NCBI GenBank assembly: GCA_902728285.1
Contig: CACVBU010000004.1
Coordinates: 299,130-363,129 of the forward strand
Source of the DNA: Clytia hemisphaerica
Lineage: Eukaryota; Cnidaria; Hydrozoa; Leptothecata; Clytiidae
Direction of reading: 5' to 3'
Length of the DNA: 64,000 nucleotides
Shown one piece after another: positions 7,237 to 41,303 of the stretch; within the stretch, counting starts at the first letter, position 1; each line of letters opens with the position of its first letter. The notes under the pieces are model-generated. The model ran no database searches. It saw nothing but the letters and a program-made list of their open reading frames with translations, and was not told where the DNA came from. The position numbers and the translations under genes were made by a program.

Positions 7237-7239
7237 TAG

Positions 7240-9903: not shown

Positions 9904-10475
9904 ACATATACCTTAAGTGGATAAATTTTGGCGTGAACTTAATTTGGCGATTGGCCAAAAAACAATTTTTGGCGGGGATTTAATTTGGCGATAGATCAAT
10001 TTCGTAAAATTTGGCGGGGATTTAATTTGGCGAATCGGAAATTTTGTCACATTGAGATGGGTGAAAATTACTCAAAAGTATACTAAAAAGTTGTGATTTT
10101 TCACATAATTCTCTTTTTGTTAAATTTGGCGAATTGCCGAATTTGGAAATTTAGGCAAGGATTTAATTTGGCGGATTTTGGCCAAATTCGCCAAATTTAA
10201 TCCCCGCCAAAATTTATCCACTTAAGGTAGTTCCTTTGTTAATTACCCTTTTTTATTGTGCTATCGATTTAGTCTCATCGTTTTCTCAGTTAAGCGTCCC
10301 ATGGGTATCATTTTAGATTTTTACACATTGTTTTTTTAAATGAATTTTTTATAACATTTTAATTAGCTTGTTTCTGTAAATTTTGATTTTAGAATCCTCA
10401 TTCTGTATTAGATTTTTACTCTGACGATGACCTCTTGTGAGTGAGGCCGAATATATAGTTTTTAATAAAAAACAA
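9904..10475 (+). mobile_element. Penelope-like 3' trailer, interrupted by a MITE
   Basis: Past the stop codon, the trailer resumes after the MITE at 9911-10227. Near 10418-10460 it has 'ctctgacgatgacctc' and 'gtgaggccgaatatat', of the kind found at Penelope-like 3' ends (a Ser-Asp-Asp-Asp-like phrase before the terminus). The exact 3' limit is inferred at about 10475, where unrelated sequence begins. Confidence 0.5.
9911..10227. mobile_element. CCTTAAG MITE (family A), copy 1
   Basis: The ends are CCTTAAGTGGATAAATTTTG and its reverse complement, flanked by TA at 9909-9910 and 10228-10229. The interior repeats AATTTGGCG and its reverse complement about eight times in both orientations. It is inserted in the Penelope-like 3' trailer. 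Confidence 0.85.
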
Positions 10476-10494
10476 AAATGCTTCTGGTTATTCT

Positions 10495-10800
10495 ATTTGT
10501 CAATAAAAAAGAAGTTTAAAGAAAAACGAATCGATATCTCAAAATGATAAAGACGTCCGCCCTGAAGGTGATCTCCTAACATATACTGATTACTCCACGC
10601 ATAGCACGTATTTACTCAAAGAGGTCATTGTCTAAATTTACAAGTTCAATAGAAAAAGAAGATGAAAGGAAAGGGAAATTGCAATAAAAAAGCAGTTTAA
10701 AGCAAAACGAATCGATATCTCAAAGTAACAAAGACGTCCGCCTGGAAGGTGATATCCGAACAGATACTGATTACCCCACGTATAGTACGTATTTACTTTA
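10495..10800 (+). repeat. Two-copy direct repeat, about 180-bp period
   Basis: The block 'acgaatcgatatctcaaa', then 'aagacgtccgcc', 'gaaggtgat' and 'acgtatttact' occurs at about 10500-10615 and again at 10680-10795. The linker at 10655-10692 repeats 35 bases found at about 9105-9140. Confidence 0.7.
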
Positions 10801-10836
10801 TTTTATGGTCTTCTTAAAAGGTCATGATCATGATAG

Positions 10837-11466
10837 AAAACAAGTAATACTTTTATGGACCGACCTATGTTATGATTTAACACATTTATAATTGATATCT
10901 ACGTGAGCGTGACATTAAACAATCATTCAGAACACAAATAGTGACGATCTATTAAAATTAGTCGTTTGTTTCTTATAAAAAAACGTTTCGAAACCAAAAT
11001 TTCATGCTCTTGAAATATTCTTTCATATTCAAGACTTCGTGAGCAAAACAACATCTTTATCATCAAAAAATTGAGCAATTTGGCTAATAACATTGATGTA
11101 TGCTTATTAATAGTGATTCTTATAGATAAACATGCGTTTTTTGAGCCAACAAATTTTTTTTGAACAAATCTGCTTGAGCCATCTTTTACCTATGATGGTA
11201 CCCTACTTTCATGCAAAAAATCAGAAAAAGTTAATGATCCAATTTTTCACAAAGTCCAAAAAACCCGTTTTTTAGCGTTTTTTGGCCCAAATTTGCCCCC
11301 AAATTTTTTTTTCTCGAAAATCGGGCTCCGTCACATTCGAGGGTTTATAGTTATGCATCTTTGTGCAAAAAATCATATAGAATGAAAGAGCCAATCACGA
11401 GGAAAGCTAATAACGAACGAACGGACGAACGAACGGACAAAGGTTAATTTATACCGGGGTAGGTCC
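10837..11466 (+). mobile_element. GGACCTACC element (family T), copy 2, both ends present
   Basis: It runs from ACTTTTATGGACCGACC to GGGGTAGGTCCA. The interior has 'ttaaacaatcattcagaac', one 'gggctccgtcacattcgagg' module and 'gtgcaaaaaatca'. Just before the right end is a run of ACGA/ACGG tetranucleotides (about 11415-11440). At 630 bp this is the shortest near-complete copy and a good reference for empty sites. Confidence 0.75.
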
Positions 11467-11621
11467 AAAAAATTGCGTAACCAAAGTGATTCCAAACGGA
11501 TTCCAAAATATATACCTTCAAGGCCCTAAAAACAATATATTTACAATTGCTCAACAATATCAAATTACTTGCCCTTAAACCAAGTACCATGTTGAGAGTT
11601 CGGGTGTCTGATATGCAAATA

Positions 11622-11874
11622 CACGCTTTCTGTATAAGAAGCAGTAAAACTTTGACTCAGGCTGGGCTGTTCTTATTTTTTGAAAATTTCAAGCTGAAAA
11701 TGTTCTTTCGATGTTCTTACGCTTAGCTTCGTAACTTAAAATGTGTTGAAAGTCTTATTAAAATCAGTACTCTCTGAAATCTGCGGCTTAGGATTATTCT
11801 TAATTTGTTCTTAGGTTTTGGTCAATTTTAAGCCTCGTGTTCTTATAAAATTTTTCTTATAAGAAAAAAGCGTG
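11622..11874. mobile_element. CACGC-end TA-target MITE, copy 1
   Basis: The left end is CACGCTTTCTGTATAAGAA and the right end TTCTTATAAGAAAAAAGCGTG, flanked by TA at 11620-11621 and 11875-11876. Related copies lie at 22609-22958 (in an intron), 41671-42050 and 59230-59489 (right part). A mariner/Tc1-type mobiliser is inferred from the TA target only. Confidence 0.8.
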
Positions 11875-11876
11875 TA

Positions 11877-12274
11877 GCTCTGCTTTTACGTTTTCAGTTC
11901 GAAAGTAGATAAGATTTTCAAGCTTTTTTGAAAGGAAAAAAACCGGTGGATGAGGCTTGGCAAAACTTTTTATGGAAACAAAAAAGAGCGTTACAGAGCT
12001 TGGTGTACTTTTTTTACTCAGAATTTCATGCTCAAATCAGACGGCATCAATCATTTCTTTCAAATTCGGTATTTTTTTACCCCTTTTTGGGGTTCGGAGT
12101 TTAGCCTGTAGCATCACTCTTTTTGTAGACCACTGTATACCATCACATAATAAGTAATGCCAAAATATTGAAACTCTTATTATCAAATAATTACAATACC
12201 AGTTTAAAAAAAAAAATAGTCACAACATAAGAACAAGTGGTATAAGCAACATTTTTAGCCATTCCATTTTATAT
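11877..12274. other. No feature recognised
   Basis: This is AT-rich sequence with short open frames but no domain or shared repeat that I can see. Confidence 0.45.
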
Positions 12275-12547
12275 CCATAGAAGGGAGGGTGGACGAACAA
12301 GGGGCAATCGGAGAAGAATTTCCAGGGGGAATGAAGGAGTATTTTTTCATTTTTCCAGGAGGTAAAAGTTTATTCTAAAATTTCTAGGGGGTAAAAGACT
12401 GATTTTAGTTCGCCCACCCTCACTTTTAAGGAATGTAAAGAATTTTTCCAAGGCTTCTTTTACAAATTTTGGCATTTTCCAGAGGGTATCCACATATTTC
12501 AAAGAATCTTTAATTGCCTTAAAAAGGTTCGTCCACCCCCTGTATGG
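12275..12547. repeat. GGGTGGACGAAC-end MITE with reiterated CCAGGGGGTAA-type motif
   Basis: The ends 'agggagggtggacgaac' and 'gttcgtccaccccct' form an inverted repeat, extended by CCATA/TATGG. The interior repeats 'ccaggggg', 'taggggg' and 'gggtaaaag' in the manner of the elements at 24482-25027 and 50608-50852. Confidence 0.65.
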
Positions 12548-12657
12548 AAATTTAATGGAACAGCCCATTGGCATTGCTCAATTCAGCTTTAACATTCACA
12601 AAGCGAGCACATAAATTTTCATTGTGTGAGTTTTGACAGATGTAATCAAGTGAACCA

Positions 12658-14078
12658 TTAAGCAATATCTTCCATGTTAATCTTGAGTTTGTAATTTAGC
12701 CATTTGCCTGTTCTCGACCTCCCAGAAACACTTGTCCATTCAGTTGATTTGAAATCACCAGACCGTACTTTAGCCTGACCATCATTGACATCCAGGCTAC
12801 ACCAATTGACATTGAGCATACAGTCTAGTGTGTAATCATGTCCCATGTTTAAATAATTTGTTGAAATGAATTCCATTGAGATATTTTTTTCGATTTTTTC
12901 AGCTCCGATGTAATCCGGTCGTATCTCATACTGGCTGGTGGTCCCTTCCGTATTATCAAGTATCCGTATTATAGTACAATGAATAGCCTTGAAGCCTACT
13001 TCCTGTTTAAAGAATAAACTTAGGCCGTAGGTGTTATCGGCATTACCTAAACATGGAGAGAGGAGAAAAGATATTTTATAATGATTAATTTTTTCAACCT
13101 AATCGTGAGGTTTTTTGGAACACAATCTTTTTCGTATTTTCTTTTATAACTTTTTAAAAGGCCGATCCAAATTTAACTAAAGAAAGGTTCAAACTTTAAA
13201 GGTCTTTTTTAATTTAATTTAGAATATAATTTAAAACCACATTCCAGCTTCCAATAGTTCGAATTACAGAAAGATTTGAATAATAGAGGTTCGAATTAGA
13301 GTGAGTTGACTGTAATATACTTTTTTTTAGAACGCCATGAAGCAACCCCAATTTTCGACTCAGGGCTGGAGTTGCTAAGGATTTTCTGGATTTCGGCCAA
13401 TAAGTTGCTTATGGATTTTGAGTCAAAAATGCCTAGCAACTTCAAAGATTTTGGCTTTTTATCTCATTTTATGTCTAGTATAGTATTCGAATACCATCGG
13501 TACACATTTTAATGCCAAATAATGCCGGAAATGTCTCTTTTTAAGGTATATTCGGTTGCTTTACCGGTTCATGCTCAGTTTCAGGGCTAGGCTGCTAAGG
13601 CGAAGTTGCTTAATTTTTTGGCCATTTTCAGGGCTGGACCCAACCTCGTCCCCGTGTATCCCAGGCTTTATTTACGTTACTGATTGACGCCAGAGAATAC
13701 CCTGGTGTTGGCTGATGCGAGAGTTCCCCCTCTGAGAGGGGGAACTTCTCAAAACAATACGTCATGAAATATTCTGACGTTACAAAGTTACACTGCAATG
13801 CAACGATCTCAAAAAAGAAGAGCGAATGAAATCTGACGTTTTGTTTTTGAATTACGTAATCTTTCGCGTTCGAAAACCAGCCAATGCCAGGGTATTATCT
13901 AGCGCTATCAGTAAGAATCAAAAAGCTGATAATACGCAGGGATCGAGGTTGGGCTGGACCCTTAGCAACTCGACTGCTTATAAATTAAAAATGTGTATCT
14001 ATTTGTATAAAAAGCGTGTTAAATGAACTTACATTGAAAACCAAAGATACCAAGCAGCATCAAAAATTGAAAATTCAT
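12658..14078 (-). CDS. Small secreted protein, two exons (14033-14078 and 12658-13046)
   Basis: Exon 1 (14078 down to 14033) encodes MNFQFLMLLGIFGFQ plus one base, with donor GTAAGT. Exon 2 begins at 13046 after a TTTAG acceptor. The phase-1 join makes a Cys codon and a 144-residue protein with no internal stop. Residues 1-15 look like a signal peptide. The mature part has Cys16 (perhaps near the cleavage site), Cys39, Cys91 and Cys98, and a possible N-glycosylation site at N70. No family is recognised; the alternating hydrophobic pattern suggests a beta-rich extracellular domain. The 986-bp intron holds a MITE at 13629-13958. The model rests on splice consensus, matching phase and the signal-peptide character of exon 1. 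An additional exon cannot be excluded. Confidence 0.65.
13629..13958. repeat. Intronic inverted-repeat element
   Basis: The arms are GGACCCAACCTCGTCCCCG on the left and, inverted, CGCAGGGATCGAGGTTGGG on the right. A second nested pair, 'gaataccctggtgttggctg' and 'cagccaatgccagggtatt', lies inside. There is also a perfect short palindrome around 13726-13748 (GTTCCCCC/GGGGGAAC). The phrases 'cagggctgga' and 'ttgctaagg' recur outside it (13365-13380, 13588-13610, 13950-13970). Confidence 0.65.
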
Positions 14079-14344
14079 GATGATCCAAACACTGACTAAA
14101 ACTCTCCGACAATAAATGGAAAAAGCTTTCGTTTACAGAAAAATCCGTACAATACCTCACGCAAGAACACTTCTGAACATGCGAAAAAAGCATACAAAAT
14201 TTTACGCAATAGAACAACAACGTCATAAGGGGTTGAAATATGATGCTACTTGGTATGGCAATTTATAAAAGGTCTACCACTTTTTAAGGGTCACTTCTTT
14301 TTGCAACAAAAACAGTCTGGTTAAGAAACTTACTTTTAATTTTT

Positions 14345-14572
14345 TTATCAATTAATTGGCTTCGTTCGTCTGTTACATACTAGCTTTTCTCGGGATTGGC
14401 TCATTAGTTTTTCTGATTTTTGGCAATACCCAAAATATGACGGAGCCCGATTTTCGAATTCCGGAAAAAACTCGTTTTTTGGAATTTTCTCGAGATTTCA
14501 TCATTAGCTTTTTCCGATTTTTTGCACAAAGATGCGTATTAACAATGCCCAAAATGTGACCGAGTCGGATTA
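14345..14572 (-). mobile_element. GGACCTACC element (family T), inverted fragment
   Basis: On the minus strand this reads 'ggtcacattttgggcattg', 'gcatctttgtgcaaaaaatc' and 'ctcgagaaaattcc', all typical family-T modules. It abuts a plus-strand copy at 14573. Confidence 0.65.
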
Positions 14573-14670
14573 AAAAAAACAAGCGATACTTTTATGGACC
14601 TACCTGATTTAAGACATATATAATTGATATCTACACTAAACAATCATTCAGAACACAAATAGTGACGATA

Positions 14671-15006
14671 CCTTAAGGGAACTTATTTTGGCGGGAACTA
14701 ATTTTGGCGAATTCAGCGAACCTAGACAAAATTCGCCAAAATTAGTTCCCGCCAAAATTAATTATTTTGCTCACTTGCCAAAATAAGTTCTCGCCAAAAT
14801 TAGCCTAAATAACTTCTTGAGTTCACAAAAAAAGCTTCAAATAAGGCAAAATAGAACATATTTAAGCTGCCATTCGCCAAAACTAGTTCCCGCCAAAATT
14901 AAAAAAAAGAATCATTTGCCAAAATAAGTTCTCGCCAAAATTAAAAATGTTCAAGATTTTTGCCACTCGTCAAAATTAGTTCCCACCAAAATAAGTTCCC
15001 TTAAGG
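14671..15006. mobile_element. CCTTAAG MITE (family A), copy 2
   Basis: The ends are CCTTAAGGGAACTTATTTTG and its reverse complement, flanked by TA at 14669-14670 and 15007-15008. The interior is built of GGCGAAAATTA-like units ('ttcgccaaaattagttccc' and inverses), about eight in both orientations. Uninterrupted relatives of the host at 18571 and 36331 read 'gtgacgatctattaaaa' and 'gtgacgatttattaaaa'. Confidence 0.9.
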
Positions 15007-15176
15007 TATATAAAGATTCGTCGTTTGTTTCTTATAAAAAACACGTTCAGAAACCAAAATTTCATGCTCAAACACAATATTCTTTCATATTCAAGACTTC
15101 GTGAGCAAAAAAAACATCTATCTCATCAAAAAATTGAGTAATTTGGCTAATAACATTGATGTATGCTTATTAATAG

Positions 15177-15959
15177 CATGGATTTATTATAGAGACTCTG
15201 GATAAACATCGAATGAAACGGTGGAGAGCGAAGTATTGTTTTTCTATTGTTTCAGAAAACAATCAATGTACAAGCTTTGTCCGCAAAGGACAACTGTCAT
15301 GGCGGCTCGAAGGACTCTGATTTTGAAAAATGATTAATACTCTTATTTCTAAAAAGTTCTCTAACTTTTTCTGATCGCACTTTTGCTGGCTAAAAGTTTG
15401 AAAATAAATACTAGAATACCAAGCGAACACATTTATGAAATCTGGTGTGAGAAAATCATCAGACGAGTAAAATCAGACAAAATGCTTATAATGACACGAA
15501 ATTTTGAATTGGGATTATCTTTCCAATATTTCTCGGAGAAGAGCTGAGACTGACATATATTAGACGTGAGTCTCATAGCTCCACTGTGGTATGAAAATCT
15601 TTTGGTGGCACGTGGTGGCACGGTGGATTTTTGGAGGTTGAAGTTTAAAAATTTCTGGTGTCAATATTCAATTTCTTATACATAGTATGTTTTTGCATCA
15701 TTCTCGAAATTTAAAACGTCATAACGACGTATAATTAGTAATTAACTAGATGAGTTTGAATCTCTGAGGAGAACTTAAAGTCTCATTTGGGAATTGGATA
15801 AGTGTATTTTGATGAGAAATGCAATTAAAAATGCTACGAAAAATCATTTAATGGTGGTAGGAGGGTGAACAATAATGTCATTACTGCGGACAAGGCTTGC
15901 ACATGAGAAATTGGCAAAAATCAGCCCGTTGTTTTTCCAGTGTCTATAATAATTCCATG
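15177..15959. mobile_element. CATGG-end insertion in a family-T element
   Basis: The ends 'catggatttattatagaga' and 'gtctataataattccatg' form an imperfect inverted repeat. The host phrase 'cttattaatag|tgattcttatag' is split at this point, which proves insertion. No clean target duplication is seen. The interior has short frames without domains. Confidence 0.7.
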
Positions 15960-16024
15960 TGATTGTGATTCCTATAGATAAAGATGCGTTTTTTGAGCCG
16001 AAATCTGCTCGAGCCATCTTTTAC

Positions 16025-16347
16025 TAACCTGATAACAGATGTTGATAATTTTCTTACGCGCACGGTAAACCTCTAAAGGCGCTTGAAAATTATACATCTG
16101 AGGAAAATAGTCCTCCCGCGGAAAATTCTACAACAAGAATCTTGTTGTGCGCCATAAAGTCAAAAACTGATACGGCACCCTATTCATAAACACAATCACG
16201 TAACTTTGTTGTCATCCCCAGTCCTTTAAGACGAACGCGGTCCTTACGATTTCGAGATTGCATATTCGTCAGATTGTATGTTTTCACCCATCCCTTTAGA
16301 GCTTCAGCGTGGTGGGCAGAAAACGACCACAATCTGATCTCAGGTTA
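16025..16347. mobile_element. hAT-like MITE with perfect 8-bp target duplication
   Basis: The ends TAACCTGATAACAGAT and ATCTGATCTCAGGTTA are inverted. The flanks TCTTTTAC at 16017-16024 and 16348-16355 are identical. An 8-bp duplication is the hAT hallmark. The host is a family-T element whose intact form ('catcttttacctatgatgg') occurs at 11180-11205. No coding capacity is seen in 323 bp. Confidence 0.88.
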
Positions 16348-16680
16348 TCTTTTACCTACTTTCATGCAAAAAATCAGAAAAAAACAATGATCCAATATTT
16401 CACAAAGTCCCTTTTTGAGCCGTTTTTCGGCTGAAATCTACGCATATTTTTTTTTCCGAAAATCGAGCTCCGTCACATTCGAGGGTTTATAGTTATGCAT
16501 CTTTGTGCAAAAAATCATAAAGAATGAAAGAGCCAATCTCGAGAAAAGCTAATAACTAAGTAATTGGTAATAAGCTTATAAAAAAAATATCGAATTTGGC
16601 CACTTTTTCTATATGAACTCGTCTAGCAACCAAAATTTCATGTCCAAACACAAATATTCAAAAAACGCCTACTTTGTGAA

Positions 16681-17060
16681 AAATTAGATCATTAGTTTTT
16701 TCTGATTTTTTGCACGAAAGTAGGGTAGGTATCATCGTAAGTAAAAGATGGCGCAAACAGATTTTTGCAAAAAAATTTTCAGCTCAACGACTAAAAACGG
16801 TTTTTTTGGACTTTGTGAAATATTGCATCATTAATGTTTTCTGATTTTTTGCATCAAAGTAGGTTACCATCATAGGTAAAAGATGGCTTAAGCAAATTTT
16901 TGCAATTTTTCGGAAAACCGTTTTTTTGGCATTTTCTCGAGATTTCATCATTAGTTTCATTAGGATGCGTATTAGCAATGTCTAAAATAGTCCGATTTTC
17001 AAGGAATTTTTTTTCCCGGTCGAAAATAACGGAAATATGCCGGAAACCGCCTTTTTGCAG
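16681..17060 (-). mobile_element. GGACCTACC element (family T), inverted fragments
   Basis: On the minus strand there are repeated modules such as 'ctactttgatgcaaaaaatc', 'cacaaagtccaaaaaa' and 'ctcgagaaaatgcc'. Two head-to-tail partial units are visible. Confidence 0.6.
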
Positions 17061-17239
17061 ATTTTCATTGAATTTTTGAATCTTTGCTTTTTCAAAACAA
17101 AAAGATTATTTATAAGAAAATGTCCACGATTAAGCATGGTTCAATTTTCAATGAAACTGATTTTGTAGAGGGAACTTTCTAAAAATCGCCGGAAGAGCCA
17201 AAGATCACAAGGAAACCGTTCGCTCACGCCGTTCTTTGT

Positions 17240-17420
17240 CGACTACAGTCGACTTTCCATAACTCGAACCTCTTCAACTCGATTATCTTCATAAACTCAA
17301 CGATTTTTCTGGTCCGTCGAGAAGATTCTTAGGCTATTCTGCCTCTCTATAACTTGAATTTCCGTAACTCGGACGATTACTGATTATCCCCTTGGCGTTC
17401 CAGCACTCGACTATATTACA
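17240..17420. repeat. AACTCGA-rich repeat fragment
   Basis: Repeated 'ataactcgaacct', 'caactcgat' and 'gtaactcgga' phrases occur here. Related 'ttcgaattaagg' and 'ttcgagttaagga' sequences occur at 13240-13305, 18055-18110, 24000-24065 and 56265-56405. The boundaries are unclear. Confidence 0.45.
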
Positions 17421-17519
17421 CTTCTCTTCTTGCTCCAAGTTTAAACATTAGTTAGGTTCAATCAGCATCCCAGCAAATTTTGGCTAAGGCTCGTGAATTT
17501 CAGGCTTAAAATGGGCATT

Positions 17520-17640
17520 TTCTCCCGTAAATCCTCGAATAAGCGCCCCGCTCGAATAAGCGCCCCCCTTTTAGTTAAATAATATTATAAGCACCCCGCT
17601 CGAATAAGCGTCCCCATTGAATAAGCACCATCTCCAGGAA
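17520..17640. repeat. CGAATAAGCGCCCC motif cluster
   Basis: Five close copies of CGAATAAGCGCCCC or slight variants occur in 120 bases. The reverse complement (GGGGCGTTTATTCG) is the building block of the tandem array at 20195-20998. These may be two ends of one element family, with 17.6-20.2 kb between them carrying other insertions. Confidence 0.6.
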
Positions 17641-20194: not shown

Positions 20195-20998
20195 AAGGGG
20201 CGTTTATTGAAAATGTTTCCTTTAGGGAGGGGTGTTTATTCGAGGGGGGTGTTTAAAATAAGGGGGTTTATTCGAAGTAATACGGTAACTGTAATAAGCC
20301 AATGAGCCTGCTTAACGAGAAGTGAGATATTTTTCACCAAGAAAGAGAGAGCGTTTATTGAAAATGTTTCCTTTAGGGAGGGACGTTTATTCGAGGGGGG
20401 TGTGTAAAAGAAGGGGTTTATTCGAAGAAACACGGTAACTGCAATAAGCCAATGAGCCTGCTCAACGAGAAGTGAGAGATTTTTCACTAAGAAAGAGAGA
20501 GAGGCGGCATTGAGGAGGCGTTTATTGAAAATGTTTCCTTTAGGTAAGGGCGTTTATTTGAGGGAGGTTGTTTAAAAGAAAGGGGTTTATTCGAAGAAAT
20601 ACGGTAACTGCAATAAGCCAATGAGCCTGCTTAACGAGAAGTGAGAGATTTTTCACCAAGAAAGAGAGAGAGGGAGCGTATATAGAAAATGTTTCCTTTA
20701 GGGAGGGGCGTTTATTCGAGGGGGTGTTTAAAAGAAGGGGGTTTATTCGAAGAAATATAGTAACTGCAATAAGCCAATGAGCCTGCTTAACGAGAAGTGA
20801 GAGATTTTTCACTAAGAAAGAGAGAGAGGCGGCGTTGAGGAGGCGTTTATTGAAAATGTTTCCTTTAGGTAAGGGCGTTTATTCGAGCGGGGTTGTTTAA
20901 AAGAAAGGGGTTTATTCGAAGAAATACGGTAACTGCAATAAGCCAATGAGCCTGCTTAACGAGAAGCGAGAGATTTTTCACTAAGAAAGAGAGAGAAA
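20195..20998. repeat. Tandem array, five units of about 150-168 bp
   Basis: 'gtttattgaaaatgtttcct' (slightly changed in unit 4) starts units near 20202, 20352, 20520, 20679 and 20844. Each unit has 'cgtttattcgaggggg', a 'ggggtttattcgaag' block, 'gcaataagccaatgagcctg' and an 'aagaaagagagag' tail. Long minus-strand frames here are the repeat read through, not genes. Confidence 0.9.
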
Positions 20999-21545
20999 AG
21001 CACTATTCTCGTATTGATTAAAAGTCGATAAAAACAACAAAAGAAATGATGAATAAAATAGTGGAAAAAATTATCAAGGAAGAACTGAAGAAGCATATAA
21101 AAGAAAGAGGAGAGAAATAATGAAAAATTATAAATTATTCAAAATTAGGAAGATTAAAACGAAAAGATGAACAAAAATAAAAAATAATGAGTATGAGAAG
21201 CAGAGGAAAAATAAGACGAAATTTTCTTTTTACCTTCGGCCGTGGAATAAAGCTGAGATTTTAAACCAAGGCTGAAATTCAAGAAAAGGGTTGCGTTTTT
21301 TGGAAATTTCAAATCGCAAAAAAGGTATTATCTTGTTTTCTCAATGCTATGGTAATTTGGGATAAAGCTATAAAGATTAGGGTTATATGAATGCTCTATC
21401 CTTTAGAAATCCAGTTGACCTGATCTGAAATCATTCTAAAAAGGCATACATAGCGAATTAAATTTGAAAACAAAACCTAGAAATTTAGAGACAAAAAATT
21501 GACTTAAAAATGAAACCTATAAGAACTTTTTAATCAGTTGATTAT
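20999..21545. other. No feature recognised
   Basis: This is AT-rich sequence with no long frame, shared repeat or motif that I can support. Confidence 0.45.
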
Positions 21546-21928
21546 ACACCTTTCCCGAATTGTTATTTAGGCTTTTGGACTTTTTTGTTTTAATGTTTGA
21601 ATGTTTCTATTTAGTTTCATAAAATTGTATGTCGCAAAACTAAACAAATAAAAAAAGAATTATGAAAAAAGCACTTCCAGTTCTTGAGTTATTTTGATTT
21701 GAAATTTCTTTATAAACAATAGAATTACATGGAAACGAGGCCGGGCTGTATGTTTTAGTTTTTATAAGGGATTTCACCTTGAACAAAAACAGTCATAAAA
21801 ATTGATAGAAAAAAGCTTTTGAGGTCAAATTTTCAGCATGCACTTGTCATTATAGGAGGAATACAAATATATAGTTTTCAATATGGTTTGAAGACCTTCG
21901 AAAAAAACCTAACAATTCGGGAAAGGTG
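21546..21928. mobile_element. CACCTTTCCCG TA-target MITE
   Basis: The ends CACCTTTCCCGAATTGTT and AACAATTCGGGAAAGGTG are exact inverted repeats, flanked by TA at 21544-21545 and 21929-21930. The 383-bp interior is non-coding. The first bases resemble the element at 51253-51517 (CACCTTTTCG). Confidence 0.85.
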
Positions 21929-22054
21929 TATTGGCTGAGCCTCAACTTGAAATAGAGGCTTCGAAATTGTACTTTCTTAAGAGCAGGCTCGAATTGTAGT
22001 TGTTAGGTTTTGCCAAAGTTTTGAGTCATTTTCTTAAAAAGGTAACCGTTTTTT

Positions 22055-26017: not shown

Positions 26018-26433
26018 CCTTATCGGCCCTCTTTACGCCAGCCCTTATTCCGCCACAGCCTAATTTAGGGATTACGCCAATAAGCCGTAAATAACGCCAA
26101 AACTTGTAAAAATCGCTACTCAGGTTTAAAAACAGGGAGTATTAACTAAAATTTACGTAAAAATATCATCTTTTATTATTAAACTGTTGAAAATTGCATA
26201 GAAAATCATTGATTTTTGAGTTTTGGATATATAGTAACAAAAATGAATAGTTTACATCCTTTAATCGTGCCTAAAATCCATTGAGAAAAAATGGTTAAAA
26301 ATTAACGCCGCTTTTAGGTAAAAATTGCAAAATTTTGGCCCTTTTTACGCCGGCCCTCTTAACACCGGTCCTTATTACGCCACGAGCCTAAAAATAACGC
26401 CAATAAGTTTTATATAAAAAAGGGCCGATAAGG
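26018..26433. mobile_element. CCTTATCGGCCC TA-target MITE with reiterated TTACGCC
   Basis: The ends CCTTATCGGCCC and GGGCCGATAAGG are inverted, flanked by TA at 26016-26017 and 26434-26435. Phrases TTACGCC, AACGCCAATAAG and ATTACGCC recur at least nine times, concentrated near both ends. The terminal CCTTA is shared with family A. Confidence 0.85.
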
Positions 26434-27251: not shown

Positions 27252-27269
27252 TATGGACTTTGTAAAAAG

Positions 27270-28520: not shown

Positions 28521-28530
28521 ATTGATTATG

Positions 28531-31880: not shown

Positions 31881-31997
31881 TTATCGCATGATTTCGAGTG
31901 CAATACGCGAGCCTTTAGGCGAGGAAAAATATCGGTAAAATCTCGGAACGAGTAAAATATCGAGTATTGCACGAGAAGTCATGTGATAACTAATTTA
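31881..31997. repeat. Short inverted repeat upstream of the J-domain gene
   Basis: The arms 'agttatcgcatgatttcgag' and its inverse 'cgagaagtcatgtgataact' extend to about 30 bp with mismatches. An internal 'gcgagcctttaggcgag' palindrome and several 'tcgag' phrases lie between them. Confidence 0.65.
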
Positions 31998-32068
31998 TTG
32001 TCGACTCAAAAAAATTGTCCTCTTTTTGTTTCAAAACTTACTTCCGCCTTCTTCTGCTTCTGTGTAGT

Positions 32069-32129
32069 TTCGAATGTTTTTATTCGAAAATCTAATTCGA
32101 ACGTTAGATTCGAACAAAAACATTCGATA
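32069..32129. repeat. 61-bp palindrome
   Basis: The arms 'tcgaatgtttttattcgaa' and 'ttcgaacaaaaacattcga' enclose 'taattcgaacgttaga'. TTCGAA-type units are repeated in both orientations. Confidence 0.7.
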
Positions 32130-33160: not shown

Positions 33161-33164
33161 ATTA

Positions 33165-33593
33165 TTAAGGGAAGAAATTTTCGCGAGAAGAAATTTTCGC
33201 GGAATTTAATTTCGCGAATCAGAGTTTCAAAATGGCAAATTTCGCGGAATTTAATTTCGCGAATGAGCCGATTTCAAAAGTTTCACGGAATTTAATTTCG
33301 CGATTGAGAAGAAGTTATCAACTTAGATTAACTGTTAAGCATCACGGAGTTGATTATATTTGATAAAAAACATACGTTATAATGCTGAAAAATCAATTGT
33401 GTCCATCTTTTTTGGTAACACCTGATCAAAAACGACAAAATAAAAGAAGAAGAAAAAAAATCGAATTTCGCGGAATTTAATTTCGCGATTTAACAATTTT
33501 GGTGTGTTTCGCGGAATTTAATTTCGCGAAATTAAATTCCGCGAAAATTTCTTCCGCGAAAATTTCTTCTCGCGAAAATTTCTTCCCTTAAGG
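33165..33593. mobile_element. CCTTAAG MITE (family A), copy 3
   Basis: The right end is CTTCCCTTAAGG then TA. The left end is TTAAGGGAAG preceded by TA but lacks the CC. The interior reiterates TCGCGGAATTTAATTTCGCG and AAATTTTCGCG in both orientations, a different sub-motif from copies 1 and 2 with the same outer end. Its left flank has lost two bases, or the end is imprecise. Confidence 0.8.
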
Positions 33594-33840
33594 TATACTT
33601 TTCTGAATTAGTACTTTCAAAATTCAATTCCACAAAATTTTACAGATAGTTCCAGTCTAAAGCTCTAAAGAGAATGGCTATAAACATGAAAACCAGAAGA
33701 AGAATGTTCAACAGGAATCAAACTAAAGCGCGATTATAGCTATTTGGCGATTATAGCTATGATAATGCCTCCAGATTATGTGTTGGGTATTAAAAATTAT
33801 CACTGATCCGTTATAGTAAATTCAACAAGCAACATGCTGA

Positions 33841-35197
33841 ATGGACCTACCTAATGATTAACATCAGATGAAAATAAGAAAAAAGTGACAATAATTGTAC
33901 AAAAATTCAGAATGGAAAAATAAAGCTTGTGTGTTGAATAATGTAAAACGGTAAAAAGGAATTTCCCCAAATACGAAAATCACTTAAACCATTCAGGCTC
34001 AAAAAACCTTTTAAGCTGTTTTTGGCCCAAATTTTCCCAAAATAATTTTCCTTAAAAATCTGGCTCCGTCACATTTTGGGCATTGCCATTTTGCATCATT
34101 GTGCAAAAAATCAGAAAAAAATTATGAGTCAACATTGAGAAAAGCTATATTTTCTTATTTGGTTAAAGGGAATTTCCCCAAAATACAAAAATCCGTCTTT
34201 TAAGGCGAATAACAATTTCCCGGGAAAAACCACTTCAGTCATTCTTTAGAGAATCTTGCACCCCATCTTCGTACAAAAAATCAGAAAAAAGTAATAACAG
34301 GATTTTTGTACAAAGTCCAAAAAACCCTATTTTAGGCAGTTTTTGGCCCTAATTTGCCCAAATATATTTTTTTTCGAAAATCTGGCTCCGTCAAATTTTA
34401 GGCATTGCCATTTTGCATCATTGTGCAAAAAATCAGAAAAAAATAATGAGTCAACTTTGAGAAAAGCTATATTTTCTTATTTGGTTAAAGGGAATTTCCC
34501 CAAAATACGAAAATCCGTTTTTTAAGACGAAAAAGAATTTTCCGGGAAAAACCACTTCAACCATTCTTTAGAGAATCTTGCCCTCCATCTTTGTACAAAA
34601 AAATCAGAAAAAAGTAATGACAGGATTTTGCACAAAGTCCAAAAAACCCTATTTTTAGGCAGTTTTTGGCCCAAATTTGCTCAAATATATTTTTTTTCGA
34701 AAATCGGGCTCCGACACATTTTAGGCATTGCCATTTTGCATCATTGTGCAAAAAATCAGAAAAAAATAACGAGTCAACATTGTTAAAAGCTATATTTTCT
34801 GATTTGGTCAAAGGGAATTTCCCCAAAAATACGAAAATCCGTTTTTTTAAGGCGAATAAGAATTTTCCGAGAAAAACCACTTCAGCCATTCTTTAGAGAA
34901 TCTTGCCCTCCATCTTTGTACAAAAAATCAGAAAAAAGTAATGACAGGATTTTGCACAAAGTCCAAAAAACCCTATTTTTAGGTAGTTTTTGGCCCAAAT
35001 TTGCCCAAATAAATTTTTTCTCAAAAATCGGGCTCCGTCACGTTCTGGGCATTGCCATTTTGCATCATTGTGCAAAAAATCAGAAAAAACTAATGAGCCA
35101 ATCCTGAGAAAAGCTGGTAACAGACAGACGGACGAACGAACGAACGGACATGGGTTAATTTATAGAACCTCCACCGGGGCACCAGGAGGTAGGTCCA
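33841..35197 (+). mobile_element. GGACCTACC element (family T), copy 5, with tandem core units
   Basis: It runs from ATGGACCTACC to GGTAGGTCCA. Four head-to-tail units of about 320 bp each contain 'gcattgccattttgcatc', 'gtgcaaaaaatcagaaaa' and 'aaagggaatttcccc' (near 34075, 34390, 34720 and 35040). Before the right end is a GAAC/GGAC tetranucleotide run (35120-35147). Frames of up to 110 residues here are repeat read-through. Confidence 0.85.
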
Positions 35198-35512
35198 AAA
35201 ATTAGTAATCCTAAAGTTTTTAAAAACTTTCATTTTGATCTGCTGTCACTGTCATTTATTCAGCATTAGGGAAAATCAAAGGTGCAGGGTTGGGTACAAA
35301 GTCAGCGTTTTCCATAAACCTTTTTCTGAAAGTGAGCCAAAGTAGAGCCAAACTGTCATTCAGAAAAAGTGGAATTATTTCTCAATAGCTGACCATTACC
35401 GCACATCATCATCTGTAAAAGTTTTTGTTTATTTCACCCAAAATGAGTCTTGTTTGAGTTTTTCACATGCCAGTATTGTGGAATTTTGGTAATGCAGAAG
35501 AGCCAGTACCGC

Positions 35513-35680
35513 GACAATTAATCCACGCAAAAATTTATCCACTTAAGGTAGCAACTTTATAGAGTAGCCAAAAAAAGCTGGATATAAAAAATCCACCCAA
35601 AATTTTTATATCCAGCTTTTTTTGGCTACTCTATAAAGTTGCTACCTTAAGCGGATAAATTTTTGCGTGGATTAATTGTC
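35513..35680. repeat. Near-perfect 78-bp-arm hairpin
   Basis: The arms at 35513-35590 and 35603-35680 pair with a single mismatch, around a 12-base loop. Each outer third is a CCTTAAG MITE end (ATCCACTTAAGG and CCTTAAGCGGAT). The middle third is an 'actttatagagtagccaaaa' unit found in inverse on the other side. Confidence 0.92.
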
Positions 35681-36074
35681 ACGGTTTTCGTGAATTTTGG
35701 CCATTTTCGCAAAAGTTAGTCCATGCAAAATTATTTGGAATTTTACAATCAGGAAAATAAAAGTTCGCAAAATCAAAGAAAGAAATCAAATTATTATATT
35801 ACATGATGAGTTCAACTCTTCATTTCAATTATAAACTCTACTCTAGTAACCTCCTAAATATACTTTTGAAAGCTTTTGAGTAACTTTGTCTGCCTTTGTT
35901 TGATTAAAAAACACACATCTCTTTTCTAGTTACGATTTATAAGGACATTTTCGCGAAATTTAATTCACACAAAAATTTTAAAGACCCTTGATTCGCAAAA
36001 TTTAATCCACTCGGAATCTTTAAATTCTCGTCTCACCAAAATTAGTACACGCAAAAATTTATCCACTTTAAAGG
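35645..36074. mobile_element. CCTTAAG MITE (family A), copy 4
   Basis: The left end is CCTTAAGCGGATAAATTTTT (TA at 35643-35644). The right end is 'aaaaatttatccactttaaagg' with an extra A, then TA at 36075-36076. The interior has AATTTTCGCG-like and 'ttaatccac' units. The left end forms part of the hairpin at 35513-35680. Confidence 0.75.
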
Positions 36075-36212
36075 TATTTGTGGGAAAAATTGGCCTATAA
36101 GGGCCATTATAAATTGTTTTTTGGCTGATTCCTAACTTATCAAATTTTGATGTGTCATATATTAAATTTGCTTAACTAGATCAAAAGGACTATAAAATTT
36201 TGCGGTCTAGAA

Positions 36213-36655
36213 AAATAACGAGCAACACTTTTATGGACCTACCTGGTTATGCATTTAACACATATTTAATTGATATTTACTACTTTACTAGTGTGACTGT
36301 TAAAACAATCATTTGGAACACAAATAGTGACGATTTATTAAAATTCGTTGTTTGTTTTCATAATTGGTTGTCCAAAATGCTCAGTCAATAGTTAAATTTC
36401 TTAAAATTTGGTGATTTTTAGTACTCATGTACTAAAATTGTTCTTAAATTTCTTACATGGTACTAAAATGCTTTAAGGCTTTTTTTGTAATATCACCACG
36501 TCACTAAAGGTCATGATGTCTGATCCCCCCTGGGTAGCCTACTTTCATGCAAAAAAATCAGGAATAATTATCAATGATCCAGTGTTCTACAAAGTCCAAA
36601 AAAAACATTTTTCAGCTGTTTTTTTTGCTGGAATTTGCCCTAAAAATCTAATTAT
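36213..36655 (+). mobile_element. GGACCTACC element (family T), copy 6, fragment
   Basis: It has the left end ACTTTTATGGACCTACC through 'agtgacgatttattaaaatt', then non-family sequence, then 'ctactttcatgcaaaaaaatc' and 'caaagtccaaaaaa'. The right end is absent. Confidence 0.65.
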
Positions 36656-37384
36656 GTATCTTGCATATGTTTTGCATATTTTCCAACTAAATCAAACCAC
36701 GGCTTTTTTTTCCTCTATTTTTGCATACAATTCAAGATGGCGGACAGTCATACTAGCGTCCCGCCAAAATGAGTATCGAAGATTAATGCTGTGAAAGCGC
36801 TATATCGTTTACTTGACTCGCAAGCAAAAAATGCGCCGCAAAACTTCTAGAGCGATTTATAAAAAAATAACCTGGCACTTTTTAATAAAATTAACATTTT
36901 CAAAAAGTATTAGAAACTGCCCAAAATTTGAGTCATAGATGAAAAAATTTGAGCCAAGCCAACCTTGAAAACTAATTTGAAGATCAACTTCCCAAGAAAA
37001 AGATCTATGGGGGAGACGGAACCCACCTAGATCCGCGCACTGAAGGATGGGCTACTTCCCGGAAATTTTACCGGACCTCAAACACTGACCCATTTACATG
37101 TGCGGAATTATTTTCACTTTAGCGTATAAACAAGGCCTTCAAAATCAAGTTTTAATTAATTGTCTTGGGAACTTAAACTTCATTCAGGTAACTCTCATCC
37201 CCTGTTGTTTCAAATACATCCTGTAGATGACTGATGCTGTTTTTTCTGAAAGCTTGATTTCCTAGTGTGACTAACTGGCGGATGGAAAGGCGAAAAGGTC
37301 TATTGTATTGATGCAAAGGCGAAGATAAAAAAGGTAAGACTAGTCTAGTTTCTAATCCTGATATAGCAGTTTTTTAAGTCTACA
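36656..37384. other. No feature recognised
   Basis: No long frame, domain or repeat match is seen. Confidence 0.4.
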
Positions 37385-37540
37385 CTGCCAGACGGTGTCA
37401 ATCGAATGAATCGAATGCGGAATGCAATTGAATATTACCCAGGAATTGCTGTTCGATTGTAACGAAATATATTCGATTGTAACGAAATATGTTCGATTAC
37501 ATTCGATTGATTCAATTGTATTCGATTTTATTCACTCTCG
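37385..37540. repeat. ATTCGAT-rich repeat
   Basis: 'attcgattgtaacgaaatat' occurs twice in tandem (about 37453-37495), surrounded by further 'ttcgatt', 'aatcgaatg' and 'attcgattga' phrases in both orientations. Confidence 0.7.
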
Positions 37541-38064
37541 TACTGTACTTACGCTCAGCCTTCTGCGCTAAAAATCGCGGGCAACGTGCATTTTTTAATT
37601 TTTTCTAGCCTTGGAAATAATTTTTCTTTTCCACTTCAGTTGGTGCAGTCGGAAATTCAGATGAAAATCCATGTAATTTCACTCTTTTTTGCCTTTTTTA
37701 ATTCAATTGCCGTGTAAATTCATACATGTGAGACAGTGGAAGCTCCAAAAGGAGCCCAATCTAAAATCTTAAATAAAATGAAGATTGTCAGTGGGTCCAA
37801 TTGACCCTAAAATGACTCTAAATGGGTCCAGGGCACTCAGTTGTGACTCTCGAGTCCAACCCTGACCCTAACTGGTAGTGACCCAATAAGTGACAAATAA
37901 GTCACTAAAGAACGTCACATTCCCGTCTAATCAAAAAATGGATTTGACCGTTCACAACCCCAACCGAAAAAGTGAGTCCACCCCTCCCGAATTATTTGAC
38001 TTGGTTCTAGCCGTTAAATATCCACTACCGGTTGAAAATTACACATGCGCAGTATTATGAAGTA

Positions 38065-38526
38065 CAGTCTGGGAAATCCTCTCAATTGCACGCTTATGTT
38101 CCGAGGGCGTAAGCGCGCAATTGCACGGTTATAATTTACGCCCGCTCACGCCCCGGTTGAGAAATTGCTTAGGGATTTCAAGGGGTTCAGAATTCTCTAA
38201 TTCGGGCGAAGGCATGGTTTAACGGGCAGTCAATTTTTACAGAATCTTCTCCTACGATAAATTTTGAGTAAAACTGCCCTAGGCTTTTGAAATTCAACAG
38301 AGCTTTCGGAAGGAATTGCGTGTCAAAAATATAAGAAATTTTAAAGCGTGCAATTGCACGCTTGCCGCAAAAGCTGTCACCTGTCAACCTTGCTTAACGC
38401 TTACCGCCCGTTTCAGAACAATTTCGATAAGCGTGTATAAAAATTCTGCCATTTTGATTAACCGTGCAATTGTGCGGCTTACGGCCTCGGAACATAAGCA
38501 TGCAATTGAGAGGATTTTCCAGACTG
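38065..38526. mobile_element. CAGTCTGG MITE with reiterated CAATTGCACG
   Basis: The inverted ends of about 65 bp begin CAGTCTGGGAAATCCTCTC on the left and CAGTCTGGAAAATCCTCTC on the right, read inward. The flanks share AAGTA (38060-38064 and 38527-38531), a likely target duplication. CAATTGCACG or its inverse occurs at least six times. Frames here are not genes. Confidence 0.85.
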
Positions 38527-38639
38527 AAGTATGTGGGCTCTAATTGGCATATACACTGTATGATGTTCTTCTCTCCCTTTGGAAATTTTGCATTTTTGCC
38601 CTCGGAAATCTAATCGGAAATCCTGTGTCGGACAAATTC

Positions 38640-40004
38640 ACGACCCTCGACATGGCCCGAGAATTCTCGGGCCTCTTCGGGCCATGTTCGGGCAAGAGAC
38701 CCTATCAATTCTTTTGGCCCGAACATGACCCGAGTCATTCGGGCCATGTTCGGGCCATGTTAAATGTTAAATTGATTCAGCATGTCCAGTCAAACAAAAT
38801 AGTACAAAATAAGATTTGTCTGTTTTGTTTATATCGCTCAAAAAAACTTTACGAGCTTCCCGTGGACACGCTTCAGTTTAAAACCAGGACCAGTTTACTA
38901 GCAAATATTTCCACCCTAAGTATATTTATAACTATGTTTGCATACCAAATAAGACATTTAATATTTATATGAATTTACAACATTCATATATTTAATATAA
39001 TTAAGAGAAACCAAGTTTTTCTCAAAGAAAATGTTAAAAGAATTCAGTCCTGAAATTACACGCCTGTTTAAATCATGTTTTCAAACAGTCAGGAGTAATA
39101 CCTTAAACAAGGCGTATACCTTGTTTAGGATGTACCTTAAACAAGGTACATGTATATACCTTGTTTAAGGTAGGGGTACCTTGTTCAAGGTATTTTTTAA
39201 GATTTCCTTAAAAAACATTGATTTTAAATGTGTTAAGGAAAAAGGGCATGTTGAATTTTAGCACAAAAGAAAGAGGACTCCTTGATTGACCAAGTAGTGA
39301 AAAAATTATCAAAATCTACAGACGGAATCTTTTTTCATCTTTGTTTTATCTTTGGAACTAGGTTTGGAACCATAAATTCAGGGGAAGAAGACAGGAAGCA
39401 AAGAAGAATAGTTAATAATACCTTAAACAAGGTGTATACCTTGTTTAGGATGTACCTTAAACAAGGTACATGCATATACCTTGTTTAAGGTAGGGGTACC
39501 TTGTTCAAGGTATTTTTAAAGATTTCTTGAAAAAACGTCGGGTACCATTTTAAATTGTTTTGTATTTTTTGTGTAAAGCTCTTTCTACACCCTTTAAAAA
39601 AGCCGATTTCGTTTCATGTAGACTAGACTTTAAGGTTGTTTTAAAATTGAAGATTGTGATCAATTCCGGCTGTGGAATTTTCTAAAAATCACCATGGGAA
39701 TTCAGTTCCTCGTGCTCTTTCCAATGGTATAGACGAGAGAGTGCCCTTTTTCCTAGTTTGGAAAATATTCCCACTACTTCCTAAATAGGAAGTATCAAAC
39801 AATAGAAATTTGGAATTCTTACTTGAACAAGGTATACGCCTTGTTTAAGGTATTACTCCTGACTGTCAAAAATTGGCCCGAGTGTGGCACAGTGTGGCCC
39901 GAACACGGCCCGAATTCTCGGGCCAGCTCGGGCCATACTCGGGCTTTACGCAAATTCCAATAAAAGTTTTGGCCCGAGAATTCTCGGGCAATGTCGAGGG
40001 TCGT
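38640..40004. mobile_element. hAT-like element with GGCCCGAGAATTCTCGGGCC palindromes
   Basis: The ends ACGACCCTCGACATGGCCCG and its near-exact inverse are flanked by an identical 8-bp duplication ACAAATTC (38632-38639 and 40005-40012). Subterminal zones repeat GGCCCGA and TCGGGCC more than ten times. The middle holds the nested element at 39085-39866. No transposase frame is seen; the 157-residue minus-strand frame at 39819-40292 is a read-through of these repeats. Confidence 0.88.
39085..39866. mobile_element. Nested element built of CCTTAAACAAGG units
   Basis: The 41-bp ends are perfect inverted repeats (ACAGTCAGGAGTAATACC, then TTAAACAAGGCG, and so on). Two ~100-bp direct copies (39099-39205 and 39417-39512) consist wholly of alternating CCTTAAACAAGG and CCTTGTTTAAGG units. 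A mismatch-free terminal repeat suggests recent activity. Confidence 0.88.
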
Positions 40005-40043
40005 ACAAATTCTGGAATGGCCCAATAATACGCATACAGCCCA

Positions 40044-40404
40044 GGACCCTGCCGACGCACCGGACTGTCCGGTGTATTTGTCCGGTGGCAAAAAGTATCC
40101 TTTCGCTACACCGGACGCAATAAGTCCGGCGTCAGTCCAGTGTTGCATACAGGGAATTTTGGACGCCGGATATTTATGAAACAAAAAATTAAGAAACACT
40201 GGGTACGCACTAGCCTGGTACGCACCGGACTGGTCATGTCCGGTGTTTTGATTGTCCGGTGGCAAAAAATATCCTTCTCTGACACCGGACATCCGACTTC
40301 CTTAAGTCCGGTGTAGAAATTGTCCGGTGGTAAAAAAGATTCTCATTTTACACCGGACTTTCGCGTGTCCGGTGTTCGTTAAGTCCGGTGCGTCGGCAGG
40401 GTCC
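40044..40404. mobile_element. MITE with reiterated CACCGGACNNTCCGGTG
   Basis: The ends GGACCCTGCCGACGCACCGG and its inverse are exact. Within 361 bp, 'caccggac' or 'gtccggtg' occurs about 13 times in both orientations. TACAGC occurs in both flanks (40036-40041 and 40405-40410) but not at equal distance from the ends. Confidence 0.88.
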
Positions 40405-40773
40405 TACAGCTACCTTTCCCCTTCTTCTCTCTGTCCCTCCTTAAAAAATAAACTGACTTGCACTTTGAAATAGCCCTTTTTGAATAAATTTAGACTTTTT
40501 TTTACCACTTCAAACCATGAATTTCCAAAAACTTACCTATACTACACCGTTTTTTTGGACTTGCTGCTGAGACTGCCACAAAGTCAGAAATGCTCTGCTC
40601 TAGACGGGTACAACGTGATAATATTCCGAAATTAATAGTCGAAATCTTAGTAGAATAGAGGCACTACACTACATAAAGGTGTTATACGTATATAATATTA
40701 TAAGATAATATAACAGTTGAACCCGACTGCATCCTGATTTTTGGCGCGTTTTTATCTCCGGTCGGGGAAAAAT

Positions 40774-41303
40774 GGGGCCTGGAATTCCCGAGTTATTTTT
40801 TTCCGAGTTATTTTTCCGAGTTATTTTACATATGACGTCAAAATTTCAGTTTTGTGACGTCATTGTGACGTCACCACAAAAATGATAACTCGAGTTTTTT
40901 TTGAGCTTTTAACTTTCCGAGTTATTTGAAAAAAATTAACTCGGTTTTTTTTCGTGCCTTTAACTTTTCGAGTTATTTGATAAATATTAACTCGGGTTTT
41001 TTTCGTTCCTCAAAGTTTTCGAGTTATTTACATTATATTTTTATAGTAGATATTCGATTTATGGAAAATTCGACTTGTTTATATGGGCTCGAGAAACTGG
41101 AAAACTTATGAACGTAAAATAAATTCCGAGTTAGCTAACTCGAAAAAGTTTTTGCGAAAAATAAAATTCGAGTTAATTCTAACTCGAAAATCCTTTTTCG
41201 AAATTAAAAAATCGAGTTAGAGTCGAGTGACGTCATAATTAGCACTTTTGCTAACTCGAAAATTGCTAACTCGAAGTTTTCGAACTCGAAGATTCCGGGC
41301 CTC
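40774..41303. mobile_element. Element with reiterated CGAGTTA / TAACTCG
   Basis: The ends GGGGCCTGGAATTCCCGAGTT and its imperfect inverse (AACTCGAAGATTCCGGGCCTC) enclose 530 bp. The left half repeats CGAGTTATTT, and the right half repeats TAACTCG and its inverse, over 15 times in all. It is non-coding. Confidence 0.82.

What the first reader, a model, noticed from the sequence alone, without database searches (positions are those of the whole stretch)
9911..41303. Many unrelated MITEs built by reiterating their own terminal motif
Elements at 5959-7236 (GAGAATGTAGGT), 9911-10227 and 14671-15006 (GGCGAAAATTA), 33165-33593 (TCGCGGAATTTAATTTCGCG), 26018-26433 (TTACGCC), 38065-38526 (CAATTGCACG), 38640-40004 (GGCCCGA), 39085-39866 (CCTTAAACAAGG), 40044-40404 (CACCGGAC), 40774-41303 (CGAGTTA), 53866-55499 (ATACCG) and 51253-51517 each repeat a family-specific 7-20 bp motif in both orientations. 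Subterminal repeats as transposase sites are known for hAT, CACTA and P elements. This degree of filling, in so many families in 64 kb, is unusual. It suggests that motif number drives transposition or that the motifs spread by local gene conversion or replication slippage.
Basis: partly seen in the sequence, partly recalled or inferred. Interest (0 to 1): 0.75.

Follow-up and report, generated by a model that had tools for sequence, protein, structure and literature searches.

The report
MITEs filled with their end motif
An animal genome carries several kinds of short, non-coding jumping DNA whose interior repeats the same short motif that lies at their ends, and in the best-studied group the copies within one element share the same spelling, which suggests arrays of docking sites for the enzyme that moves them.

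Summary
Of 12 named elements, 9 repeat a terminal 7-mer inside more than shuffles allow (p<=0.01), one is borderline (B), two fail (A, K). Fetched genomic copies show that the arrays are a family property, with clean target-site duplications: 8 bp (I 19 of 20; G 6 of 10), 5 bp (F 20 of 27; H 3 of 4), TA. The families are not all unrelated: B, C, E and an element at 35.6 kb share one end (CCTTAAG; 2328 genome matches, reversed control 0); G/I and F/H probably pair up. J is a chimera.

New here: the TA group has TTTGGCG and TTTCGCG classes, and inner sites bearing C or G match the element's terminal base at 109 of 109 (25 clusters; 11 inner A/T sites left out). In one colinear pair the motif core is kept (29/30), spacers diverge (45/72), and all five class bases differ. 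This fits arrays of transposase-binding sites evolving in concert. No transposase was found, so the binding protein is inferred. Motif density shows no clear relation to copy number. Known kind (subterminal transposase sites); the extent and concerted change are a new variant.

The parts
9911..10227 (.). Element B, superfamily S1 (TSD TA; CCTTAAGTGGATAAATTTTGGCG), G-class motif TTTGGCG x10
   Evidence: interior test p 0.053
14671..15006 (.). Element C, superfamily S1 (CCTTAAGGGAACTTATTTTGGCG), G-class motif x8 exact
33165..33593 (.). Element E, superfamily S1 (CCTTAAGGGAAGAAATTTTCGCG; left-most CC lost in this copy), C-class motif TTTCGCG x14; scored genome relatives at 90-96%
35645..36068 (.).
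26018..26433 (.). Element D (CCTTATCGGCCC ends, TA flanks), ACGCC x7 all on one strand; possible S1 relative, copies not sought
38065..38526 (.). Element F, S3 (5-bp TSD AAGTA; CAGTCTGGGAAATCC), CAATTG core x5
38640..40004 (.). Element G, S2 (8-bp TSD ACAAATTC; ACGACCCTCGACATGGCCCGAG), GGCCCGA motif, interrupted by H
39085..39866 (.). Element H nested in G, S3-like (5-bp TSD TCAAA; CAGTCAGGAGTAATACC), ACCTTGTT/AACAAGGT x10; best relatives at 97-99%
40043..40405 (.). Element I, S2 (8-bp TSD in 19 of 20 copies; AGGACCCTGCCGACGCACCGGAC), CACCGGAC/GTCCGGTG x13
40774..41303 (.). Element J, S4 (9-bp TSD in some relatives), chimera of J1 (left, about 1-316) and J2 (right, about 322-530); CGAGTTA array and TGACGTCA x4; no TSD here
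53866..55499 (+). Element L, ATACCG x14, all on one strand; ends G-rich; copies not sought
5957..7238 (.). Element A, TIR pair flanked by TA; motif not reiterated beyond chance
51249..51521 (.). Element K, TIR pair flanked by TA (CACCTTTTCG); terminal motif not reiterated in the interior beyond chance

Best explanation
These are MITEs of about four end types (S1: TA duplication, CCTTAAG; S2: 8 bp, ASGACCCT, elements G and I; S3: 5 bp, CAGTCWGG, elements F and H; S4: 9 bp, J). Each end is bipartite: a short outer end, shared within a type, where the transposase cuts, and a family-specific motif that its separate DNA-binding domain recognises. The motif is repeated through the element at recurring spacings as an array of binding sites that loads several transposase molecules. 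The array evolves in concert: copies within one element are copied from one another (or are selected together), so when recognition changes, all sites change while the spacers drift. Shown: ends, TSDs, arrays in fetched copies, C/G concordance inside S1, and, in one colinear pair, conservation of motif core over spacer. Inferred: that the bound protein is the transposase, the bipartite recognition, and the way the sites are homogenised.
For: TSDs of one length per family: I 8 bp perfect in 19 of 20, F 5 bp 20 of 27 (30 given), G 8 bp 6 of 10 (11 given), H 5 bp 3 of 4; S1 TA. S1: 25 clusters with terminal C or G and inner C/G sites (11 C, 14 G): inner base equals terminal base at 109 of 109 C/G sites (permutation p at its floor, 5e-5); fresh clusters alone 19 of 19 C/G sites. 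A second variable base of the unit (A/G) matches at 71 of 80 sites in 29 clusters, p 1.5e-4. Colinear pair B (G-class) and L004b (C-class), beyond the first 23 bp: motif core 29/30 identical, spacers 45/72 (Fisher p 2e-4), class base 0/5. Unit word and class occur in several combinations (GGAA-C 8, GGAA-G 6, TGGA-G 5, GGGA-C 2, AGAA-G 2, GGGA-G 1, TGAA-C 1), so a switch or exchange happened more than once. Same-strand spacings 15-16 (49), 26 (10), 41-42 (25) in S1 clusters; 10-11 in G, 16 in I, 42-44 in J2, 51-53 in J1. Precedents seen in passages: Ac transposase binds AAACGG subterminal repeats cooperatively, and a cited title names a bipartite domain (PMC3260210); Galileo TIR repeats hold extra transposase sites (PMC4079207, PMC3573991).
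Against: No transposase or autonomous partner was found. Eleven long or enlarged end-pairs were fetched (G: L130-L132; H: L133, L134, L137, L138; F: L159-L162); 30 of their ORFs scanned with Pfam (none from L159) gave one confident domain, a reverse transcriptase in L137. Counting all bases, inner equals terminal in 123 of 153 sites, and the fresh clusters with T included give 21 of 30, p 0.097. The 109 of 109 leaves out 11 inner A/T sites of those clusters, two clusters with only inner T, and the clusters with terminal T or A. Helical phasing over all families is not established (5.25 bp p 0.004, but the best period stays below the scan null). The 5-of-5 switch rests on one pair; a second (L107 against L004b) has only 2 sites. 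Motif exceeds spacer identity in 17 of 21 pairwise comparisons, which overlap, six of them with only 6 motif positions.
Confidence: 0.55

Rival explanations
1. The arrays are a passive by-product: units multiplied by slippage, unequal exchange, foldback duplication and nested insertion in a founder, then spread by transposition. Concordance of inner and terminal bases is shared descent from one founder per class, with no function of the inner copies.
For: Tandem 15-16 bp units at several ends; several J1 copies are foldback-like with long inverted arms; chimera J shows recombination between families; motif number varies between G copies.
Against: In the colinear pair B/L004b the motif core is kept (29/30) where spacers are not (45/72), with positions kept, and spacings recur over clusters. 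C- and G-class occur with several unit words, so one founder per class does not suffice without exchange.
Confidence: 0.22
2. The motifs are host transcription-factor sites captured by the elements: TTTSGCGGGAA in S1 resembles an E2F site and TGACGTCA in J is a CRE/ATF palindrome (both resemblances recalled). The elements would use host factors for timing or chromatin access; E2F sites multiplied by MITEs are reported for Brassicaceae.
For: TTT[CG]GCGGGAA occurs 3 times in the window, all in S1; TTT[CG]GCG[CG] 13 of 19; TGACGTCA occurs in 12 of 12 fetched J copies and 4 of its 6 window sites are in J. Review passages on Brassicaceae (PMC12595863).
Against: Other families (GGCCCGA, CACCGGAC, CGAGTTA, CAATTGCACG) show the same architecture with motifs for which I know no such factor; the repeated motif is also in the terminal repeat; TTTSSCGC, a looser E2F form, has 0 of its 8 window sites in S1.
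Confidence: 0.13
3. The inner motifs matter as DNA structure (hairpins, fold-back) or as nucleosome or methylation signals, not as protein-specific sites.
For: Some motifs are palindromic or in inverted pairs (GCGTGCAATTGCACGC in F, CGAGTTAGCTAACTCG in J2); many contain CpG.
Against: In S1 a specific base (C or G) is uniform within elements while either would serve a structure.
Confidence: 0.07

Closest known systems
Maize Ac/Ds (hAT) with AAACGG subterminal repeats
   Same: Short family motif repeated near the ends, beside a separate terminal repeat; passages of PMC3260210 say the transposase binds the hexamers cooperatively.
   Different: There the repeats are described in the terminal 200 bp; here they run through whole elements of about 240-800 bp. 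No hAT transposase was linked to any family here.
Galileo and other foldback elements of Drosophila (Tetris, FB)
   Same: Internally repetitive inverted repeats with extra transposase sites, and chimeric copies without matching TSD; passages of PMC3573991 and PMC4079207. J matches this closely in anatomy.
   Different: Galileo has 7-bp TSDs and tandem repeats of about 200 bp in its TIRs; here 5, 8, 9 bp or TA, and units of 7-16 bp.
CMITE, coral MITEs (Acropora)
   Same: MITEs whose interior is conserved between families; PMC2872659, abstract, Results part 1 of 2 and Discussion read.
   Different: CMITEs are about 100 bp with TTAA TSD and CCCTTT-type ends; five of six family ends tried had no match in the window or fetched loci and the sixth one match without TTAA flank; the parts read do not describe a motif array.
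E2F-site-rich MITEs of Brassicaceae
   Same: MITEs that multiply E2F sites (review PMC12595863, passages).
   Different: Here the unit is also the terminal unit and comes in C- and G-classes that are uniform within elements.

Membership tests
MITE | Short, TIR-bounded, TSD-flanked, many similar copies, no coding capacity | tested here: met
   I, F, G, H, S1:
Tc1/mariner-type (for S1) | TA target-site duplication | tested here: met
   flanks; some copies have one degenerate side
Tc1/mariner-type (for S1) | DDE/D transposase of that superfamily with the same ends | not tested
   No S1 element with a coding interior was fetched and no transposase family was searched in the genome
piggyBac/CMITE (for S1) | TTAA target-site duplication | tested here: not met
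   TTAA lies inside the conserved end CCTTAAG; the duplicated flank is TA
hAT (for S2: G, I) | 8-bp target-site duplication | tested here: met
   I 19 of 20, G 6 of 10
hAT (for S2: G, I) | hAT transposase with the same ends | tested here: inconclusive
   G: 100 of 274 end places listed, the one long pair (L130) carries inserts and no transposase domain in ten ORFs; I: no pair above 643 bp in 100 of 719 places
Mutator-like/foldback (for J) | 9-bp target-site duplication | tested here: inconclusive
   J1: 1 perfect (L120) of 5 with both ends by script, J2 L114 8 of 9, L119 read by eye; 9 bp has the highest mean identity in J1 (0.67) but other copies are imperfect
Mutator-like/foldback (for J) | MULE transposase | not tested
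   no search run
Galileo/P superfamily | 7-bp target-site duplication (Galileo) | tested here: not met
   no family tested shows a 7-bp peak

The most novel reading that the evidence does not exclude
In the TA (S1) group, a transposon's dispersed recognition sites (up to 14 or more per element) change specificity as one block, more than once, in place and without loss of array geometry: a copy-correction process inside a few-hundred-bp element that lets a MITE lineage shift from one transposase (or DNA-binding domain) to another. Several transposon types in the same genome have converged on whole-element site arrays.
Probability: 0.3. Interest if true: 0.75.

Novelty: new variant of a known kind. 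Interest (0 to 1): 0.5.

Why it matters
How transposase recognition and its scattered binding sites change together is an open question, because one changed site is of little use without the others. A genome with over two thousand S1 ends, two clean site classes and several unit words gives a natural data set to ask whether sites are copied from each other or selected one by one. The elements also spread E2F-like or CRE-like words, which matters for gene regulation if those factors bind them.

Tried and rejected
Autonomous partners: end-pattern lists were read for long pairs (G 100 of 274 places, F 100 of 305, I 100 of 719, J1 39 of 39, H 30 of 30). The G pair of 4.96 kb is one G with a 4.4-kb insert; H pairs hold G, S1, I and F copies and, in L137, a reverse transcriptase gene; the longest F pair holds what I read by eye as a non-LTR retroelement, the others unidentified inserts. 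One H pair of 1.9 kb and several G and F pairs of 0.9-1.4 kb were not fetched. Pfam on 30 ORFs of ten of the eleven fetched loci gave only sub-threshold hits besides that reverse transcriptase. No transposase family was searched genome-wide; the 12 searches went to the element families.

Helical phasing over all families: tested, not established. Core inversion in F: an apparent second motif position came from loci kept in genome orientation, so it was dropped; the F majority string mixes orientations and is not used as evidence. A real T-class in S1: many T cases look like decay of C at CpG (terminal T with inner C); one family (L094) is T at all five inner sites. CMITE ends were sought as a clue to a coral origin without success, so the host is left as an unnamed animal (two 7tm_1 receptor genes).

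Motif number against copy number: no clear order with five families.

Literature: nine searches in an open-licence library; by title and start of abstract none listed is about array-wide site switching in MITEs, but I opened only the papers named.
Full report
What was checked. The window is C3:299130-363129 of a 417-Mb, 951-contig assembly of an unnamed animal (two rhodopsin-type receptor genes and a DnaJ/SAP protein). I read every named element, scanned for inverted repeats without using the finding, and ran two shuffle tests. Nine of twelve elements repeat a terminal 7-mer in the interior at p<=0.01; B is borderline (0.053, although its best 8-mer over the whole element beats all 200 shuffles), and A and K fail. 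Of the other TIR pairs put in, 1 of 9 tested reaches that level. D and L have their exact copies on one strand only.

Families, not singletons. Own-genome searches and end patterns gave: E (739 first-look candidates, 40 scored), F (317, 40 scored; 305 exact 23-bp ends), I (983, 40 scored; 719 ends), J (728, 40 scored; 39 exact J1 ends), G (488, 40 scored; 274 exact 31-bp ends), H (85, 40 scored; 30 ends). The reversed-pattern controls of the six pattern searches were all 0. TSD length by script: I 8 bp perfect in 19 of 20 (two of these share flanks, a duplicated locus); F 5 bp in 20 of 27 (30 given, 3 without both ends); G 8 bp in 6 of 10 (11 given); H 5 bp in 3 of 4; the window's G and H are perfect too. 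J1 has one perfect 9-bp TSD of five (7 given) and another read by eye; J2 L114 8 of 9 (4 given, 1 with both ends).

Four end types. S1: TA duplication and CCTTAAGNGRANNNATTTTNGCG, 1135+1193 matches, control 0: B, C, E and 35.6 kb. S2: 8 bp, G (ACGACCCTCGACATGG) and I (AGGACCCTGCCGACG). S3: 5 bp, F (CAGTCTGGGAAATCC) and H (CAGTCAGGAGTAATACC). S4: about 9 bp, J1 and J2. The S2 and S3 pairings rest on 7-8 shared outer bases and equal TSD length, so they are probable, not proven. D, A and K have TA flanks; L's ends are unclear; copies of these four were not sought.

The array. In I the sites sit at the same alignment columns in nearly all of 20 copies. In S1 a unit of about 16 bp (GGRAWTWAATTTNGCG) often occurs in pairs 15-16 bp apart, pairs repeating at 41-42 bp; pooled over one element per cluster the same-strand distances are 15-16 (49), 26 (10), 41-42 (25). 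G sites are 10-11 bp apart within groups, J2 sites 42-44, J1 sites 51-53. A common helical period across families was tested and is not established.

Concerted change. S1 has G-class (TTTGGCG) and C-class (TTTCGCG) elements. In a first set (53 unique elements, 32 clusters) the inner base equals the terminal base in 88 of 116 sites, 26 clusters, permutation p 5e-5. A fresh set of 19 stretches gave 20 elements, 9 of them new clusters: 21 of 30 (p 0.097), all 9 misses involving T. Pooled, all bases counted, 123 of 153 in 35 clusters with inner sites. Restricted to C and G, 25 clusters (11 C, 14 G) give 109 of 109. That restriction was made after seeing the T cases; it leaves out 11 inner A/T sites of those clusters, two clusters with only inner T, and clusters with terminal T or A; T fits decay of CpG. 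A second unit base (A/G) matches in 71 of 80. In the colinear pair B and L004b the motif core is kept, the spacers are not, and the class base differs at all five sites; L107 against L004b agrees with few sites (17/18, 54/83, 0/2). Of all 21 pairs in that call, 17 show motif above spacer; the four that do not involve L103 or L100. Because positions are kept in B/L004b, rebuilding the array from the end is less likely there than copying or selection in place.

Mechanism. Best reading: a conserved outer end for cutting plus an array of family-specific sites for a separate DNA-binding domain of the transposase, as described for Ac (PMC3260210 passages) and Galileo; subterminal repeats in hAT ends are also discussed in PMC4763223 (passages), while an extra internal site can restrict activity, as for piggyBat (PMC11707139 passages). 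The binding protein has not been seen here. The fetched long end pairs turned out to be copies with other MITEs, a reverse transcriptase gene or unidentified DNA inside.

J. The window copy joins a J1 left part and a J2 right part and lacks a TSD, like the chimeric Galileo copies in PMC3573991. Both J types keep TGACGTCA.

Verdict. Real, family-wide and unusual in extent; of a known kind. The array-wide C/G uniformity in S1 is the part most worth following.

Noticed in passing
L133, L137, L138, L061; window 38640-40004: The MITEs nest in one another: H holds G (L133 and L137, different sites), S1 with I inside it, and F; F sits in an I-like sequence (L061); H sits in G in the window. Two G-in-H events against about 0.08 expected from first-look counts (Poisson p 0.003; the pair was chosen after seeing it, counts are rough).
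   Followed up: partly
window 40833-41235; L110-L121: TGACGTCA (CRE-like palindrome, resemblance recalled) in 12 of 12 fetched J stretches, one to five each; 4 of 6 window sites lie in J.
   Followed up: partly
window S1 elements 9911-10227, 14671-15006, 33165-33593: S1 units contain E2F-like words (resemblance recalled): TTT[CG]GCGGGAA 3 of 3 window sites lie in S1.
   Followed up: partly
window 35508-35685: Near-perfect 178-bp palindrome (83-bp arms, 98%) carrying the S1 end, beside another S1-ended element.
   Followed up: no
window 20196-20996, 34009-35115, 56937-57584: Satellite-like tandem arrays with periods 169/325, 322 and 124 bp.
   Followed up: no
window 21544-21931 and 51249-51521: Two TIR elements share the end ATACACCTTT, perhaps one more family without inner motif filling.
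   Followed up: no
L130 about 230-560: Dense TATCGAT words inside an insert within G, possibly another motif-filled element.
   Followed up: no
L160:3-638 (+): A 212-aa open frame from the left flank into an F element's insert, with no Pfam family at E 0.1.
   Followed up: no
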